A stretch of 11,048 nt of DNA, from assembly GCA_946611445.1 (NCBI GenBank), contig CAMODP010000050.1, forward strand, positions 1-11,048, read 5' to 3'. Shown here one piece after another: positions 3,317 through 8,492 of the stretch. Source of the stretch: an uncultured Eubacterium sp. (GTDB lineage: Bacteria; Bacillota; Clostridia; Lachnospirales; Lachnospiraceae). Within the stretch, counting starts at the first letter, position 1. Each line of letters opens with the position of its first letter. Made by a program: the position numbers and the translations under genes. Under the pieces are notes generated by a model. That model saw only the letters and a program-made list of their open reading frames with translations, searched no databases and was not told the origin of the DNA.

Positions 3317-3562
3317 TCAGCGTTTTGCCCTTGCCGCTACGATGGCAGCCATCTCCCCTACATTTTTCATCGTCGACACCTCGCTCATACGGAACTTCAT
3401 GCCGAATTCACTCTCCACCGCCGCGACCAGCGTGATGTGCTCCAGGCTGTCCCAGTCTTCGATATCATCCGCAGTCGTAGAAGCGGTCACGCGGATTTTT
3501 CTGTCGTCGAATACTTCCTGGAAAACCCGGTTCAGGCGGTCATATACTTCTCTCTCTGTCAT
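3317..3562 (-). CDS. Stand-alone acyl carrier protein
   Basis: This is an 81-residue acidic carrier protein. The 4'-phosphopantetheine attachment site is Ser39 in the motif DWDSLEH (36-42), and the rest fits the four-helix ACP fold. It starts directly after an FkbH-type gene, so it is the expected acceptor of the three-carbon unit made by that enzyme; WDSL-type carriers paired with FkbH are well known in glyceryl-ACP chemistry. I chose ATG 3562 because GGAGGA lies about 7 nt upstream. An in-frame ATG at 3613 overlaps the fkbH stop and has no such site. It is unlikely to be the fatty-acid-synthesis ACP, since no fab genes are nearby. A DltC-like role as cytoplasmic donor for the MBOAT is inferred from gene order. 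It is the last gene before the terminator. Confidence 0.9.
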   Translation of the reverse strand: MTEREVYDRLNRVFQEVFDDRKIRVTASTTADDIEDWDSLEHITLVAAVESEFGMKFRMSEVSTMKNVGEMAAIVAARAKR

Positions 3563-3568
3563 GGTGTG

Positions 3569-3575
3569 ATCCTCC
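3569..3575 (-). promoter_or_regulatory. Strong ribosome binding site of the acp gene
   Basis: GGAGGAT on the minus strand, 6 nt before ATG 3562, decides the start codon of the carrier protein. Confidence 0.8.
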
Positions 3576-3612
3576 GAATTTTGTACTATATGTTTTTTTA
3601 TTGATATGTGCA

Positions 3613-5388
3613 CTATATAATATGTATATAGCGATTTTGCGGCGTGTACCCCGCCGTCGGCAGCTCCCAGACTGTATTGCCCGCCTCGTCTTCCGACACT
3701 TTTGTGAAGCCGAAGGTGCCGTACAGTTCGCGGACCATGGCGTTTTTCTTCGTGGGATAATAGTAGCCGCGGATCAGGCGGATGCCTGACGCGGAGGCTG
3801 TCTCCACAAGGCGGTCCAGCATGGCCTGCTCCATGTCTCTTTTCAGGACACGGCAGCTCATCAGCCAGAGATCAATGTGGAGGATATCTCCTTCCTTCCG
3901 GCCGATCACGACGGAGACAACGCCGTTGTCGCCGAAGCGGTCTGTCAGTTTTCCGTACAGACGGATGTATGAAGGATCCTTCCAGATGCTCTCCATCTCC
4001 GCCGCGGAGTAGCGCCTTGTCGTGAGGTTGAACTGGTTGCTCTTGTTGGTGAGCTGGGTGATGCGGGCCAGATAGACGGGCTGGAAATCCTCGATGACCG
4101 CCTCCATGTCGAGACTGTCCAGATACTCCCCGTAATCGGCAAACGCAGCCTGCGAGGCGGCGCGGCGGGCGTTTTCCATGTACATTTCGTTCCGCTTGAG
4201 GTCATCCTCGTTCAGGGATACCGCTTCAAAATAGCCGCCGCGGTCGAGTGTGATGATGTAGTTCTCGACCCCTTCCATTTCCGGAGCCTGCAGACCCGGG
4301 ATCTGTGCTTCTGCAATGGCCCGTTCCGCCGGATTGTCATCGACAAACACGATTGATTCGGGAAGGATATTCAGTTCCGCGGCAATCTCCGCCAGGTTGC
4401 GGTCTTTGTTCTCCCAGTTCGCCCTGATACAGACAAAATCCTCAGGACGCAAGGCGCCGTCCGGATGCCGCAGTCCGTCCATCGCGTTCTCCAGGTCATT
4501 CTTGGAGCAGACAGTCAGCATGATGCCGGCGGATTTCAGCCGCCGGATATAAGCCTGGAACTCATAGTAGCTCTGGGCAACACCGGTCTCCTGTCCCACT
4601 TCGATCCCGTCCACGCCGTCATCGCCGACAACGCCGCCCCACAGCGTATTGTCAAGGTCAAGGGCCAGCGCCTTCCTGTTCCGTCCGAAGACTGCCTTGA
4701 TGATATTGGAAACGGAGAAGGCAAACAGCGGAATCGCGTCAAAGCACATGCAGTACTTATACATATTCCAGTAATACGGATTGAGCCACTCCTTCAGGCC
4801 GTAATCGGAAGCCAGGTAACTCAGATCATGTACATGAAAATCCTCTGTTCTGTCTGCATAGGCATACAGTCTGTCGTTCAGCCGGCCGATATAGTTCACG
4901 GTTCCCCGGTAATCCGCGCAGTCGCGGCTTCCCAGGATCCGGTACAGAGGCGGTTCGAAATTATTCTGTACAATCGGGCAGTGAAATGTCTCCCGCAGTC
5001 TGTCCCAGATCGCCTCAAAGCGGGAAGCCTCCGCTTCCAGCTTTTCATTCACGCCCTCCCGGCTGTCCGTCATGTCCGGAAGATTCCGGATATTCCGGTT
5101 CGATGTGTGGAGGAAGATCAGGTCAGGGGCAAAGTCCAGAAATTCCTGATCCGGAAACATCGCCTGCTGCTCATACTGCGCGTATTCACATTCATAAAAC
5201 ACCGGCTCGATGCCGTTGTCCAGAAGGAACAGCTCCATGCACTTTACGATGTCGCTCGTCGTGGAGCCGCCGAGCACAGCGATCTTTTTTACAAACCGGC
5301 TGCTGCCGTCCTCCGCAAGTTTTCTCCGGAGAGCCTTTCTCTTCCGCAGAATCATCTGGGAATCAAACGGATACTGCAGTTCTTTCAT
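3613..5388 (-). CDS. FkbH-type HAD-IIIC enzyme (glyceryl-ACP synthase-like)
   Basis: This 591-residue cytoplasmic enzyme has three parts. Residues 30-215 are an SGNH-like N-terminal region with GGST at 40-43. Residues 238-375 are the HAD core with DLDNT (244-248), SKN (296-298), Lys328 and VDD (349-351), so all four HAD motifs are intact. Residues 390-580 are a GNAT-like C-terminal region that includes the FkbH hallmark NKSNQFNLT (448-456). Characterised FkbH proteins of polyketide and tetronate pathways take 1,3-bisphosphoglycerate, remove phosphate and load a glyceryl group on an ACP. The same reaction is predicted here, with the neighbouring ACP as acceptor. The enzymes that would turn glyceryl-ACP into methoxymalonyl-ACP are absent, so glyceryl may be the final group. 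It begins 41 nt after the DHHW gene, and its GGA-rich SD is rather far (about 13 nt) from ATG 5388. Confidence 0.88.
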   Translation of the reverse strand: MKELQYPFDSQMILRKRKALRRKLAEDGSSRFVKKIAVLGGSTTSDIVKCMELFLLDNGIEPVFYECEYAQYEQQAMFPDQEFLDFAPDLIFLHTSNRNIRNLPDMTDSREGVNEKLEAEASRFEAIWDRLRETFHCPIVQNNFEPPLYRILGSRDCADYRGTVNYIGRLNDRLYAYADRTEDFHVHDLSYLASDYGLKEWLNPYYWNMYKYCMCFDAIPLFAFSVSNIIKAVFGRNRKALALDLDNTLWGGVVGDDGVDGIEVGQETGVAQSYYEFQAYIRRLKSAGIMLTVCSKNDLENAMDGLRHPDGALRPEDFVCIRANWENKDRNLAEIAAELNILPESIVFVDDNPAERAIAEAQIPGLQAPEMEGVENYIITLDRGGYFEAVSLNEDDLKRNEMYMENARRAASQAAFADYGEYLDSLDMEAVIEDFQPVYLARITQLTNKSNQFNLTTRRYSAAEMESIWKDPSYIRLYGKLTDRFGDNGVVSVVIGRKEGDILHIDLWLMSCRVLKRDMEQAMLDRLVETASASGIRLIRGYYYPTKKNAMVRELYGTFGFTKVSEDEAGNTVWELPTAGYTPQNRYIHII

Positions 5389-5429
5389 ATAATGTAATCA
5401 ATCCTTTCCGGGATCCGGATCCGCTTATT

Positions 5430-7019
5430 TTATACCTGTGCCGCGCCCGTTTCCTGTTCGCCGGATGCCTCCTGGTCCGGATAAGCATCCTGGCCGGCAG
5501 TGCCGTCCTGTGTCCCGCTGCCGGCAGACGGCGCGTCATCAATAATGGCGCTGCCCGCGTCCTGGGTCATCAGCTGATCGAGAGATGTGACGACCTGATT
5601 GCCGACCGTATCGCTGTCACAGCTGAATACAAAGTCCGTGATGCCCATCGCCCTGATAAAATCAGGCAGGTTCCTGGCAAAGTACCGCTGGTCTATTACC
5701 CAGATCTCCTCGAAGGAGCCCGTCAGGAACGGAATCTCCGCGTTGCCGTAGCTGTCCTTGAGCATCAGCAGTTTCCTGCCGTTCTTCACGGATGTGCGCA
5801 CTTTGATAATCTGATCATCCGATCCCATAAAGCGCAGATAAGAATTCGGCACGTCTGTCTCGATCAGCAGGCCGTCTGTATACTGATAATTAAAGCTGAT
5901 GTCATAGTGATCCGCTTCCACGGCAGGCACGGGCTCGTACCAGGTAAAGACCTCCGGATCATTGAGCAGATTGGAGCTCTGCGTATACCCATACAGAGAG
6001 CCGACATAGCCGTCCACTGACTGCTCATTATAGCTGTCCAGCGCGGCATAGGGAACGCCGGCCGCTTCCGCCAGCTTCTGGGCGGAATAGTACGCGCCGA
6101 GTGCCGACCAGTGATGATCGGTGCGCAGGTAAATATCCTCTTCCTTGTGCTGGTCCAGAACCTCTGTGACGTCAACCTTGATAATGCCCTCGTTCAGCTT
6201 TGACCATACCTTCTTAAAGGTCTCTCCCTGCGGAACGGAATACTCGCTGTAGTTAGCCGGCAGGTAGTATTCGCTGGCCAGCGGGACCGGCATGGAATAG
6301 ATCTTGACCGTATCACCTATCTGGTCATACAGCTCGTTCATAAAGCTGATATAATTCTCACATTCGCCGCCGGCGAACAGAGGCAGACCGCGCCAGTGTC
6401 CGTCCAGATTGACGATGACAAAGCCGTTTTCAAAAGTACCTTCCGCGTTTTCCTGATGATAGTCGCGGGTCTCCTCCTCTTCGGCCGCAGCAGAAGACGC
6501 AGCGGCTGCGGCAGATGCTGCCGCGTCAGAAGACGCAGGAATGGACGCGTCACTTCCCGATGATGCCGTCTTGCCTGCCGAAGCGGAAGCCGTCTCTGTC
6601 TTCTCCTCTGCCGGAGATTCATCCGACACCTTTTTGACATTTCCGATGACCTCTGCTGTGTTCCCGGAACTGATGCCAAACAGGGATTTCAGGTTGTTGT
6701 TGGCATTCTTGAACGCGTCGCGGAACGGCACGGTATCCGTGTACCAGGTCATCACCCCGTCCGTAAACTCGCCCGAGAACCAGCTGTTCAGGGACAGAGC
6801 GGGGAATTTTGTCAGCTCTCTTTTTTCTATATTGGACACCTTGGAGCGCGGAAATACCAGCAGAAAAAGAGAAATCAGCAGCCAGAACAGAAACAGTCCC
6901 GAAACCAGTCTCCGCGACAGCCGCAGATCCAGCCTCCGGCGGCGTTTTGCCTGCCTCTCTTTTCTCAGTCTCCGGCGTTCTTCCCGGTCCATCTCCATTT
7001 CATTCCTGTCTTCCTGCAT
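5430..7019 (-). CDS. DHHW/AlgJ-like membrane-anchored acyl-transfer protein
   Basis: This 529-residue protein has a strongly basic cytoplasmic start (1-38) and one membrane segment (about 39-56). An extracytoplasmic region follows with the DHHW motif at 301-304 and the KDSYGN motif at 421-426 (Ser423 as likely nucleophile). These residues define the DHHW/AlgJ/AlgX group of SGNH-like proteins, which work with MBOAT proteins to place acyl groups on extracellular polysaccharides. DltD has the analogous role in teichoic acid alanylation. Residues 136-185 are a low-complexity linker rich in Ala, Ser and Glu that splits the juxtamembrane part from the catalytic part, and the C-terminus (486-529) is also low-complexity. 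The start at 7019 has a GGGAG site about 8 nt upstream and lies 19 nt after the MBOAT stop, so the two are almost certainly co-transcribed. The acceptor polymer is unknown. Confidence 0.88.
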   Translation of the reverse strand: MQEDRNEMEMDREERRRLRKERQAKRRRRLDLRLSRRLVSGLFLFWLLISLFLLVFPRSKVSNIEKRELTKFPALSLNSWFSGEFTDGVMTWYTDTVPFRDAFKNANNNLKSLFGISSGNTAEVIGNVKKVSDESPAEEKTETASASAGKTASSGSDASIPASSDAAASAAAAASSAAAEEEETRDYHQENAEGTFENGFVIVNLDGHWRGLPLFAGGECENYISFMNELYDQIGDTVKIYSMPVPLASEYYLPANYSEYSVPQGETFKKVWSKLNEGIIKVDVTEVLDQHKEEDIYLRTDHHWSALGAYYSAQKLAEAAGVPYAALDSYNEQSVDGYVGSLYGYTQSSNLLNDPEVFTWYEPVPAVEADHYDISFNYQYTDGLLIETDVPNSYLRFMGSDDQIIKVRTSVKNGRKLLMLKDSYGNAEIPFLTGSFEEIWVIDQRYFARNLPDFIRAMGITDFVFSCDSDTVGNQVVTSLDQLMTQDAGSAIIDDAPSAGSGTQDGTAGQDAYPDQEASGEQETGAAQV

Positions 7020-7038
7020 ATCGCTCTCCCATCCTCTG

Positions 7039-8460
7039 TCAGAACCGCCAGTACAAGAACGGATTGTTTGTGGTATCCACCAGCATGATCGAACTGCACA
7101 CCAGCAGCAGGATGCAGAGTATCATGGAGCCGACCTTCCCGATCCGGAAGACGGCGTCATCCTGGCTGTTCACATACCATTCGCGGGCCTTCGGTATGAG
7201 CGGGAAACAGAACAGTACGGCCGCGATGATGAGGAAAATATTGTTCACCAGCGCCGCCCACGTGATCGGATCCGCAAAACCGCCGCTGCCCGTGAGCATG
7301 CTGATGCCTGTGATATTCAGGAAAAAGCGGCCCAGGTCGCGCAGATTTTCAAAATAAAAAATGCCGAAGCCGATCACAATGACCAGCTTGCTGTAAATAT
7401 GCTTCCACCACACCGGCCAGGCTTTGATCTTTTTCTTGCCCAGTCTCTGCTCGAAAAAGATGAAGCAGCCGAAATACAGACCCCAGAGGATAAAGTTCCA
7501 GGCGGCGCCGTGCCACATGCCGGTACAGAACCACACCAGGAACAGGCTCAGGTACATGCGTCTCTTTCCGAACAGGGGAACATAGAGCAGGTAATCCCTG
7601 AAAAAGGATCCGAGTGAGATATGCCATCTCTGCCAGAACTCAGCGATAGTCTGGCACATGAACGGGTAATTGAAGTTCTCATCAAAATGAAAACCGAACA
7701 TCCGTCCCATGCCGATCGCCATGTCCGAATATCCGCTGAAGTCAAAATAGACATACATCGAATAGACAATCACGACAAACCAGGTGCCGAGCAGGGACAT
7801 GCCCTGTACGCTGTTCCCGAAGAACCGGTCGACGATCACATACAGATTGTTTGCCAGAATGACTTTTTTCGCCAGTCCGACAATGACCCGCTGCGCGCCT
7901 TCGTACATATCGACAGCGTTTGTTTTTCTGTTTGTCAGTTCCTTCTCGATCACGCTGTAGCGTACGATCGGTCCCGCGATCAGCTGCGGGAAGAAGGACA
8001 GGTAGACCAGGAAGCGGTAGAACTTTTTCTGCGGTTCCACACTCTCCCAGTAACAGTCGAGAATATAGGAAATAGCCTGAAATGTGAAGAAGCTGATGCC
8101 GATCGGCAGGCGGATTGCCGGAATCGGGATCGAAGTCCGGAACACGCCGTTGATCGTCTCAAGGAAAAAGCCCGTGTACTTGAACACGAGAAGAAATGCC
8201 AGATCCACGACAAGGGCAGCTGCCAGAAGCAGCTTTCCTGCCGGTTCTTCGCGGAACCGGTCAATCTGAAGTCCCATAAACCAGTTGAAAAAGGCGCTGA
8301 AAACCAGCAGAAACACCCAGGCAGGCTCACCCCAGGCATAGAAAATCAGAGAAAAGACGATAAGTATAATGTTCCTGGTGCGCAGCCGGTCTGCATGATA
8401 ATAGCAGAGCAGGCAGAGCGGCAGGAACAAAAACAGAAAAAACAGATCAGCAAAAACCAT
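7039..8460 (-). CDS. MBOAT family O-acyltransferase (AlgI/DltB-like)
   Basis: This 473-residue polytopic membrane protein has many hydrophobic segments. It carries the MBOAT signatures: catalytic His317 in GMWHGAAWN, and His280 in the EFWQRWHISLG stretch followed by FFRDYLLYVPL. AlgI and DltB relatives move acyl groups from a cytoplasmic donor to the outer face of the membrane, where a partner such as AlgJ or DltD finishes the transfer. That partner is encoded next. The donor is predicted to be the ACP encoded two genes on. The last six residues, FLYWRF (468-473), resemble the C-terminal Tyr motif of DltX. I chose ATG 8460 because GGGAG lies 6 nt upstream and the hydrophobic N-terminus starts there. 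The in-frame ATG at 8487 lacks a ribosome binding site and adds a polar extension. Confidence 0.93.
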   Translation of the reverse strand: MVFADLFFLFLFLPLCLLCYYHADRLRTRNIILIVFSLIFYAWGEPAWVFLLVFSAFFNWFMGLQIDRFREEPAGKLLLAAALVVDLAFLLVFKYTGFFLETINGVFRTSIPIPAIRLPIGISFFTFQAISYILDCYWESVEPQKKFYRFLVYLSFFPQLIAGPIVRYSVIEKELTNRKTNAVDMYEGAQRVIVGLAKKVILANNLYVIVDRFFGNSVQGMSLLGTWFVVIVYSMYVYFDFSGYSDMAIGMGRMFGFHFDENFNYPFMCQTIAEFWQRWHISLGSFFRDYLLYVPLFGKRRMYLSLFLVWFCTGMWHGAAWNFILWGLYFGCFIFFEQRLGKKKIKAWPVWWKHIYSKLVIVIGFGIFYFENLRDLGRFFLNITGISMLTGSGGFADPITWAALVNNIFLIIAAVLFCFPLIPKAREWYVNSQDDAVFRIGKVGSMILCILLLVCSSIMLVDTTNNPFLYWRF

Positions 8461-8492
8461 TACAGACTCCCTCTCACCTTCATTCATCTGAT

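What the first reader, a model, noticed from the sequence alone, without database searches (positions are those of the whole stretch)
3317..8460. Predicted Dlt-like surface glyceroylation module: MBOAT, DHHW protein, FkbH, ACP
Four consecutive genes combine an ACP-loading enzyme of the FkbH type (all HAD motifs intact), its ACP, an MBOAT transporter-transferase and a DHHW/AlgJ-like partner. In the Dlt system the donor is D-Ala on DltC, loaded by DltA. Here no adenylating ligase is present and FkbH would supply a glyceryl group derived from 1,3-bisphosphoglycerate. The absence of the later methoxymalonyl-ACP enzymes suggests glyceryl itself is moved to an extracellular polymer. This would tie wall decoration to a glycolytic intermediate.
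Basis: partly seen in the sequence, partly recalled or inferred. Interest (0 to 1): 0.82.

Follow-up and report, generated by a model that had tools for sequence, protein, structure and literature searches.

The report
Carrier-fed surface acylation module, probably glyceroyl
Four neighbouring genes look like a bacterial system that loads a small acid, probably glyceric acid made from a sugar-breakdown intermediate, onto a carrier protein and passes it through the membrane onto a cell-surface polymer; the same gene set recurs in many gut bacteria, but the chemistry has not been tested.

Summary
On the minus strand, in order of transcription, lie an MBOAT (7039-8460), a DHHW/PatB1-like SGNH protein (5430-7019), a three-domain FkbH protein (3613-5388) and an acyl carrier protein (3317-3562). 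Catalytic residues are intact and conserved. The order MBOAT>DHHW>FkbH>ACP is kept in 58 of the 80 best related loci. In 7 of 7 genomes of loci without an MBOAT beside FkbH, an MBOAT-DHHW pair was found elsewhere. The MBOAT ends in FLYWRF, the FXYXXF acyl-shuttle motif of PatA and DltX.

It is not a Dlt operon: no DltA or DltD in the window, DltB score far below cut-off. It looks like a PatAB-type machine fed by its own carrier protein, loaded by FkbH instead of a ligase. FkbH-ACP pairs sit beside several MBOAT lineages, one of which also holds DltA-linked MBOATs; a similar set occurs on Sinorhizobium pSymB. That the group is glyceryl is the family-based expectation, unproven; the acceptor is unknown. 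Open-access text searches found no description. A new variant of a known kind.

The parts
7039..8460 (-). MBOAT membrane O-acyltransferase (first gene of the module); ATG at 8460 preferred over the ORF start at 8487
   Evidence: PF03062 63 bits; TIGR04091 DltB 152 bits, below cut-off 375; PDB match DltB 6bug; His289 and His326 (numbered from 8487) in 56 of 56; GAGAGGGAG before ATG 8460
7042..7059 (-). C-terminal hexapeptide FLYWRF = FXYXXF acyl-shuttle motif, Tyr479 (numbered from 8487)
   Evidence: Tyr in 56 of 56 aligned MBOATs; motif described for PatA and DltX in PMC12148441
5430..7019 (-). DHHW protein: N-terminal helix, disordered linker about 115-181, SGNH-type O-acyltransferase domain (Asp301, His303, Ser423)
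   Evidence: PF14286 189 bits, PF16822 ALGX 45 bits; model matches 4nzk (TMt 0.88), PatB1 5v8d (0.73), AlgJ 4o8v (0.55); D301, H303, S423 in 71 of 71
3613..5388 (-). FkbH protein: N-terminal SGNH-like domain, HAD-IIIC domain, C-terminal GNAT-like domain
   Evidence: PF21211, TIGR01686 264 bits; 3slr; three-domain model; D244, D246, T248, S295, K328, D350, D351 and C512 in 81 of 81
3317..3562 (-). Acyl carrier protein, 81 aa, phosphopantetheine Ser in DWDSLEH
   Evidence: PF00550; Ser in 76 of 76; GGAGG before ATG 3562

Best explanation
A carrier-protein-fed surface acylation pathway. Step 1 (inferred from family): the FkbH protein takes 1,3-bisphosphoglycerate in its HAD domain, removes phosphate and, through its GNAT-like domain with the invariant Cys512, places a D-glyceryl group on the phosphopantetheine arm of the ACP. 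Step 2 (inferred from PatA and DltB): the MBOAT takes the acyl group from the ACP in the cytoplasm and, with its conserved His326, passes it to Tyr479 of its own C-terminal FLYWRF tail on the outside. Step 3 (inferred from PatB and PatB1): the tail hands the group to Ser423 of the membrane-anchored DHHW protein, which esterifies a hydroxyl of an extracellular polymer. Shown here: gene set, order, residues, predicted folds, conservation and co-occurrence. Not shown: substrate, acceptor, any activity. The role of Cys512 is my inference from its invariance.
For: Order conserved in 58 of the 80 best loci. In 7 of 7 genomes of loci without MBOAT beside FkbH, an MBOAT-DHHW pair was found. In 392 class genomes other than the own one, 9 hold the module-type MBOAT at E<=1e-150; 8 of these 9 hold the FkbH at that threshold against 19 of 383 others, and the ninth (G544) has a contig-cut FkbH beside its DHHW and MBOAT. 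Catalytic residues invariant. FXYXXF tail. DHHW model matches PatB1 and AlgJ. [quoted passage not shown]). In a tree of 64 selected MBOATs, a clade of 21 (SH-aLRT 100) holds 14 FkbH-linked and 7 DltA-linked members and none without a loader nearby, as if the loaders were exchangeable on one carrier-fed MBOAT type. Glycerate esters on a bacterial polymer exist: gellan (PMC9104527 passages).
Against: The window's own MBOAT lies outside that 21-member clade, nearest (beyond its own FkbH-linked clade) to DHHW-paired MBOATs, most of them without FkbH of their own, whose donor may well be acetyl-CoA. In G578 and G602 the MBOAT and FkbH-ACP are far apart (G578: about 1.7 Mb along one contig), and in G602 and G466 no DHHW hit lies beside the MBOAT. 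Some FkbH-ACP loci have GT2-TagF genes where MBOAT and DHHW would be, and a 46%-identical FkbH on a Subdoligranulum plasmid has no MBOAT within 8 kb. No biochemical data. D-glycerate is expected from 1,3-bisphosphoglycerate, while gellan carries L-glycerate, so that precedent is chemical, not genetic. The polymer is unknown; the own genome, 67% complete, has no PF04464 hit.
Confidence: 0.6

Rival explanations
1. The MBOAT-DHHW pair O-acetylates a polymer from acetyl-CoA, as PatAB and AlgIJ do, and FkbH-ACP serves a second, separate step in building the same polymer, such as adding a glyceryl group to a sugar or to the polymer backbone.
For: Beyond its own FkbH-linked clade the window's MBOAT is nearest to DHHW-linked MBOATs, most of them without FkbH of their own. 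FkbH-ACP or FkbH can sit next to GT2-TagF genes without MBOAT (L022, L048, L067, L040, L071). In G578 and G602 the two pairs are far apart. FkbH occurs without MBOAT in clusters with NeuB-like genes (my reading by eye; L117, L136, L175). Glyceric acid is an LTA constituent in C. difficile (PMC10642750 passages).
Against: Four-gene order in 58 of 80 loci. FkbH-ACP next to MBOATs of several lineages. In the window's own family and order many FkbH-linked MBOATs share a clade with DltA-linked ones, which are expected to use a carrier protein.
Confidence: 0.2
2. The same machine, but the acyl group is not glyceryl: FkbH loads phosphoglyceryl, lactyl or another acyl phosphate, or glyceryl is altered on the ACP before transfer.
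For: FkbH-ACP loci of the own family and order often carry a VOC protein (7 of 19 family loci, 4 of 14 order loci) or genes that look MaoC-like and SDR-like by eye (L124, L133, L165, L168), which could change the acyl group.
Against: None of these lies in the window, and a VOC gene is within 3 kb of FkbH in 0 of 80 loci of the window's type. HAD and SCR motifs match those of an FkbH in a Streptomyces KAS III-FkbH-ACP cluster.
Confidence: 0.15
3. A diverged Dlt operon that esterifies D-alanine.
For: The DltB model matches at 152 bits and a carrier protein is present.
Against: No DltA in the window; DltB cut-off (375) not reached; the SGNH partner is DHHW, not DltD; a separate MBOAT locus with a DltA-like ligase lies on C93.
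Confidence: 0.03

Closest known systems
PatA/PatB (Gram-negative), PatA1/PatB1 (Bacillus) and AlgI/AlgJ/AlgX MBOAT-SGNH O-acetyltransferases
   Same: MBOAT with fused C-terminal FXYXXF motif and a separate SGNH partner; the partner's model matches PatB1 and AlgJ
   Different: Those are described as using acetyl-CoA and lacking a carrier protein (PMC12148441); here an ACP and an FkbH loader are encoded alongside
Dlt D-alanylation of teichoic acids (DltA, B, C, D, X)
   Same: A carrier-protein-bound acyl donor (expected here) handed to an MBOAT and then to an SGNH protein
   Different: FkbH in place of the DltA ligase, DHHW in place of DltD, and the shuttle tyrosine sits in the MBOAT tail rather than in DltX
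FkbH glyceryl-ACP synthases of methoxymalonyl and tetronate pathways (for example tetromadurin Mad7/Mad8 and Mad14/Mad12, PMC7489565)
   Same: FkbH family protein beside a stand-alone ACP
   Different: No dehydrogenases, O-methyltransferase or FabH-like enzyme in the window; the partner is a membrane acyl-transfer pair
Gellan gum glycerate ester
   Same: Glycerate esterified to an extracellular polysaccharide
   Different: L-glycerate; I found no donor or enzyme (listings) or in passages of PMC9104527; no homology shown here

Membership tests
MBOAT-SGNH surface O-acyltransferases | MBOAT domain with conserved His | tested here: met
   PF03062 63 bits; His326 in 56 of 56
MBOAT-SGNH surface O-acyltransferases | FXYXXF shuttle motif at the MBOAT C-terminus | tested here: met
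   FLYWRF in the window; Tyr in 56 of 56
MBOAT-SGNH surface O-acyltransferases | SGNH partner with Ser-His-Asp and PatB1/AlgJ-like fold | tested here: met
   D301, H303, S423 in 71 of 71; 5v8d and 4o8v fold matches
MBOAT-SGNH surface O-acyltransferases | Acyl-CoA as donor | not testable with these tools
   An ACP is encoded in the module, which argues for a carrier donor instead
Dlt system | DltA D-alanine-carrier ligase in the operon | tested here: not met
   None among the ten window proteins; one DltA-like match in the own genome, on contig C93, 264 bits, below the cut-off of 560 and cut by the contig end
Dlt system | DltB at model cut-off | tested here: not met
   152 bits against 375
Dlt system | DltD-type SGNH protein | tested here: not met
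   Partner matches PF14286 DHHW and the PatB1 fold
Dlt system | Acyl carrier protein | tested here: met
   PF00550 with DSL serine
Dlt system | Separate DltX microprotein | not tested
   No dedicated search; the motif is fused to the MBOAT
FkbH glyceryl-ACP synthases | FkbH domain over curated cut-off | tested here: met
   TIGR01686 264 bits against 146.65
FkbH glyceryl-ACP synthases | HAD catalytic residues and SCR cysteine | tested here: met
   81 of 81 in close relatives; kept in all 39 rows of the more diverse set
FkbH glyceryl-ACP synthases | Loads glyceryl from 1,3-bisphosphoglycerate onto the ACP | not testable with these tools
   Needs an enzyme assay
Methoxymalonyl-ACP operon | Two dehydrogenases and an O-methyltransferase beside FkbH and ACP | tested here: not met
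   None among the ten window proteins

The most novel reading that the evidence does not exclude
A widespread and repeatedly assembled class of carrier-protein-fed surface acylation in bacteria: FkbH-ACP pairs have been joined to several MBOAT-SGNH chassis (DHHW type, Dlt-like type, alphaproteobacterial type), so that glycerate taken directly from the activated acyl phosphate 1,3-bisphosphoglycerate, without a ligase, decorates surface polymers of gut and rumen Clostridia and of rhizobia.
Probability: 0.5. Interest if true: 0.78.

Novelty: new variant of a known kind. Interest (0 to 1): 0.62.

Why it matters
A 2025 paper on PatAB says that MBOAT-SGNH pathways other than Dlt lack a carrier protein (PMC12148441, Discussion). 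This module would be a second carrier-fed branch, with a different loader and a hydroxy-acid payload. Record titles place it mostly in uncultured Ruminococcus, Clostridia and Oscillospiraceae, several of them from rumen or gut, whose surface chemistry is little known (recalled), and it allows a clear test in vitro. Using 1,3-bisphosphoglycerate, already an activated acyl phosphate, needs no ligase (though it forgoes the ATP that glycolysis would make from it) and would link surface decoration to glycolysis.

Tried and rejected
Considered and rejected: a Dlt operon (membership tests above); a methoxymalonyl or tetronate cluster (no further enzymes in the window); the flanking genes as parts of the module. 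In the 80 loci the queries for the two SGNH hydrolases, nitroreductase, aspartate-semialdehyde dehydrogenase and argininosuccinate lyase gave no hit, and the PcsB-like protein one, L005; a further PcsB-like hit lies beside the MBOAT in L193. That the module follows a teichoic polymerase: TagF-like hits lie near 21 of 80 loci, three of them weak (51-53 bits), but the own genome has no PF04464 hit, so the acceptor stays open.

Literature searches (open-access PMC text only, no preprints, subscription papers largely missing) that listed nothing on an FkbH-MBOAT surface pathway. The two papers holding both FkbH and MBOAT concern aeruginosin-type peptides (passages of one read; the other seen as a listing).

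Alternative partners in the own family, Sinorhizobium and Tistrella had no significant Pfam match; 3 of 10 gave weak Lipase_GDSL_2 matches (E 0.014-0.13). I call them SGNH-like from GxS and DxxH-type motifs seen by eye. Promoter-like sites: 14 against 7.3 (sd 2.6) in shuffles, one at 3612-3585 just before the ACP; terminator-like sites: 14 against 9.2 (sd 3.4); not used as evidence, and the first leaves open a separate ACP transcript. The FkbH model is only moderate (pLDDT 74, pTM 0.49), with a low-confidence stretch at 247-271 that overlaps HAD motif I. The MBOAT tree is a quick one without bootstrap; the FkbH tree has long branches.

Counts to read with care. One search kept the best 80 of 148 confirmed matches, so the 80 are the nearest relatives. 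The script gives 57 of 80; I add L017, which it missed because its FkbH frame overlaps the DHHW frame (all four genes are). Some of the 58 have an MBOAT cut by the contig start (L016, L021, L050). Family sample: 22 matches over the cut-off in 21 genomes; I fetched 20 regions (not the own genome, not G097), and one (L131) fell below my 150-bit limit, leaving 19. Order sample: 14 loci of 13 genomes out of 28 with a match; some belong to the own family; G210 among others was not fetched. Plasmids: 12 of 121 places in 119 records fetched, two of them the same S. meliloti module; L186 fell below 150 bits, leaving 11. Class sample: of 27 other genomes with FkbH at E<=1e-150 I looked at 22; 5 (G364, G382, G415, G489, G504) were not examined. 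MBOAT tree: 64 selected MBOATs, with 9 GTDB loci standing for the four-gene type; labels go by FkbH or DltA hits within 6 kb. L125 and L131 were dropped from the FkbH tree. Genomes within a sample are related, so the Fisher p-value of 1.5e-9 overstates independence.
Full report
WHAT IS THERE. The window is contig C50 (11,048 bp) of an unnamed 1.95 Mb, 67% complete genome. The module genes are on the minus strand: MBOAT 7039-8460, DHHW 5430-7019, FkbH 3613-5388, ACP 3317-3562, with gaps of 19, 41 and 50 bp; by eye, a purine-rich stretch precedes the MBOAT, DHHW and ACP starts. Upstream lie nitroreductase, aspartate-semialdehyde dehydrogenase and argininosuccinate lyase genes; downstream a PcsB-like coiled-coil protein and two SGNH hydrolases.

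CONSERVATION. A scan of GTDB genomes with the FkbH gave 148 confirmed matches, of which the best 80 were kept (61-73% identity). In 57 of 80 the order MBOAT>DHHW>FkbH>ACP on one strand is found by a scripted rule; L017 makes 58. Of the other 22, 18 have under 4.5 kb of sequence upstream of FkbH; 14 of these 18 still show the DHHW gene there. Four (L022, L048, L049, L067) have room and no MBOAT or DHHW there; in L022, L048, L067 and in the short L040 and L071 a GT2-TagF-like gene lies directly upstream. L010 has an inverted ACP, and L025 no ACP hit. In the 7 genomes of L010, L022, L040, L048, L049, L067 and L071, an MBOAT 59-62% identical to the window's was found in 7 of 7, with a DHHW gene beside it in 7 of 7; for L010, whose contig starts inside FkbH, this pair could in truth be the neighbour. 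Outside the four genes the commonest flank cluster that is not an antisense frame is a generic ABC-transporter ATPase, in 26 loci.

REVERSE TEST. Among 393 class genomes (own included), the module-type MBOAT (E<=1e-150) is in 10 and the FkbH in 28. Leaving out the own genome, 8 of 9 MBOAT genomes have the FkbH against 19 of 383 others; the ninth, G544, has an FkbH cut by the contig end next to its DHHW and MBOAT. Of the 27 other FkbH genomes I looked at 22: 19 have an MBOAT within 5 kb of FkbH, G466 is cut by a contig end, and G578 and G602 do not. In G578 the MBOAT-DHHW pair and FkbH-ACP lie about 1.7 Mb apart along one contig; in G578 and G602 FkbH-ACP has two DHHW-like frames upstream; in G602 and G466 no DHHW hit lies beside the MBOAT.

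OTHER BACTERIA. In the own family (unnamed) 21 of 100 genomes have FkbH over the cut-off; 12 of 19 loci examined have an MBOAT within 8 kb, in varied orders. In the order sample 9 of 14 loci do; two of the five without are on contigs of 3.2 and 5.4 kb. Of 11 plasmid loci, 3 do: two copies of one Sinorhizobium meliloti pSymB set (MBOAT, SGNH-like protein, ACP, FkbH; MBOAT ending FLYQGF) and one from Tistrella (FIYAGF). The other eight include polyketide-type clusters (L145, L185) and a 46%-identical FkbH of Subdoligranulum without MBOAT (L144), so FkbH alone does not imply this pathway.

PHYLOGENY. In a quick tree of 64 selected MBOATs, FkbH-linked ones need at least 6 changes of label on well-supported branches. 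The window's MBOAT lies in a clade of 10 that are all FkbH-linked (SH-aLRT 100). A separate clade of 21 (SH-aLRT 100) holds 14 FkbH-linked and 7 DltA-linked MBOATs and no unlinked one. This fits exchange of loaders on a carrier-fed MBOAT, and repeated joining of FkbH-ACP to different MBOATs. The FkbH tree likewise forces at least 6 changes, with long branches.

WHAT MOVES, AND ONTO WHAT. [quoted passage not shown]); biochemical proof for OzmB and others is recalled, not read. Glycerate esters exist on gellan (PMC9104527 passages), as L-glycerate. TagF-like GT2 proteins lie upstream in 21 of 80 loci and Stealth proteins in 13 of 80 (Pfam check of one representative each), which hints at phosphate-rich surface polymers in those species, but the own genome has no PF04464 hit. 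The own genome has two further MBOAT loci: C93 with a DltA-like ligase and C215 with a DHHW-like partner, so three MBOAT systems may run side by side.

VERDICT. A real, conserved four-gene unit; best explained as FkbH-ACP-fed, MBOAT-DHHW surface acylation, most likely glyceroylation. Function is inferred throughout.

Noticed in passing
L120, L128, L129, L132, L134, L135, L136, L156, L163, L164, L173: A VOC (Glyoxalase_4) protein of about 130 aa lies within 3 kb of FkbH in 7 of 19 family and 4 of 14 order loci but in 0 of 80 loci of the window's type; by recalled analogy with methylmalonyl-CoA epimerase it might epimerise the acyl thioester.
   Followed up: partly
L090 (own genome contig C190) 3-200 and 295-543: A second FkbH C-terminal fragment, 74% identical to the window's, at a contig start with a convergent ACP gene, as in L010: a second module, or sequence from a related strain.
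   Followed up: partly
L142 8228-13425 and L184 2228-7425 (Sinorhizobium meliloti pSymB): A similar MBOAT, SGNH-like, ACP, FkbH set in a model rhizobium; the SGNH-like protein is annotated as a TonB-dependent receptor, which looks wrong, and a VOC family protein is annotated upstream of the MBOAT.
   Followed up: partly
L013, L022, L035, L048, L067 and others, upstream of FkbH: Stealth and GT2-TagF fusion genes upstream of the module or of FkbH, suggesting a phosphopolymer locus in rumen Ruminococcus-like genomes.
   Followed up: partly
L117, L136, L172, L175: FkbH without MBOAT near NeuB-like genes (L117, L136, L175) or near flagellin-like or flagellar-rod-like genes (L136, L172); all read by eye from the translations.
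   Followed up: no
L168 7254-9037: Two frames that look like transketolase halves, by eye, between FkbH and ACP in one order genome.
   Followed up: no
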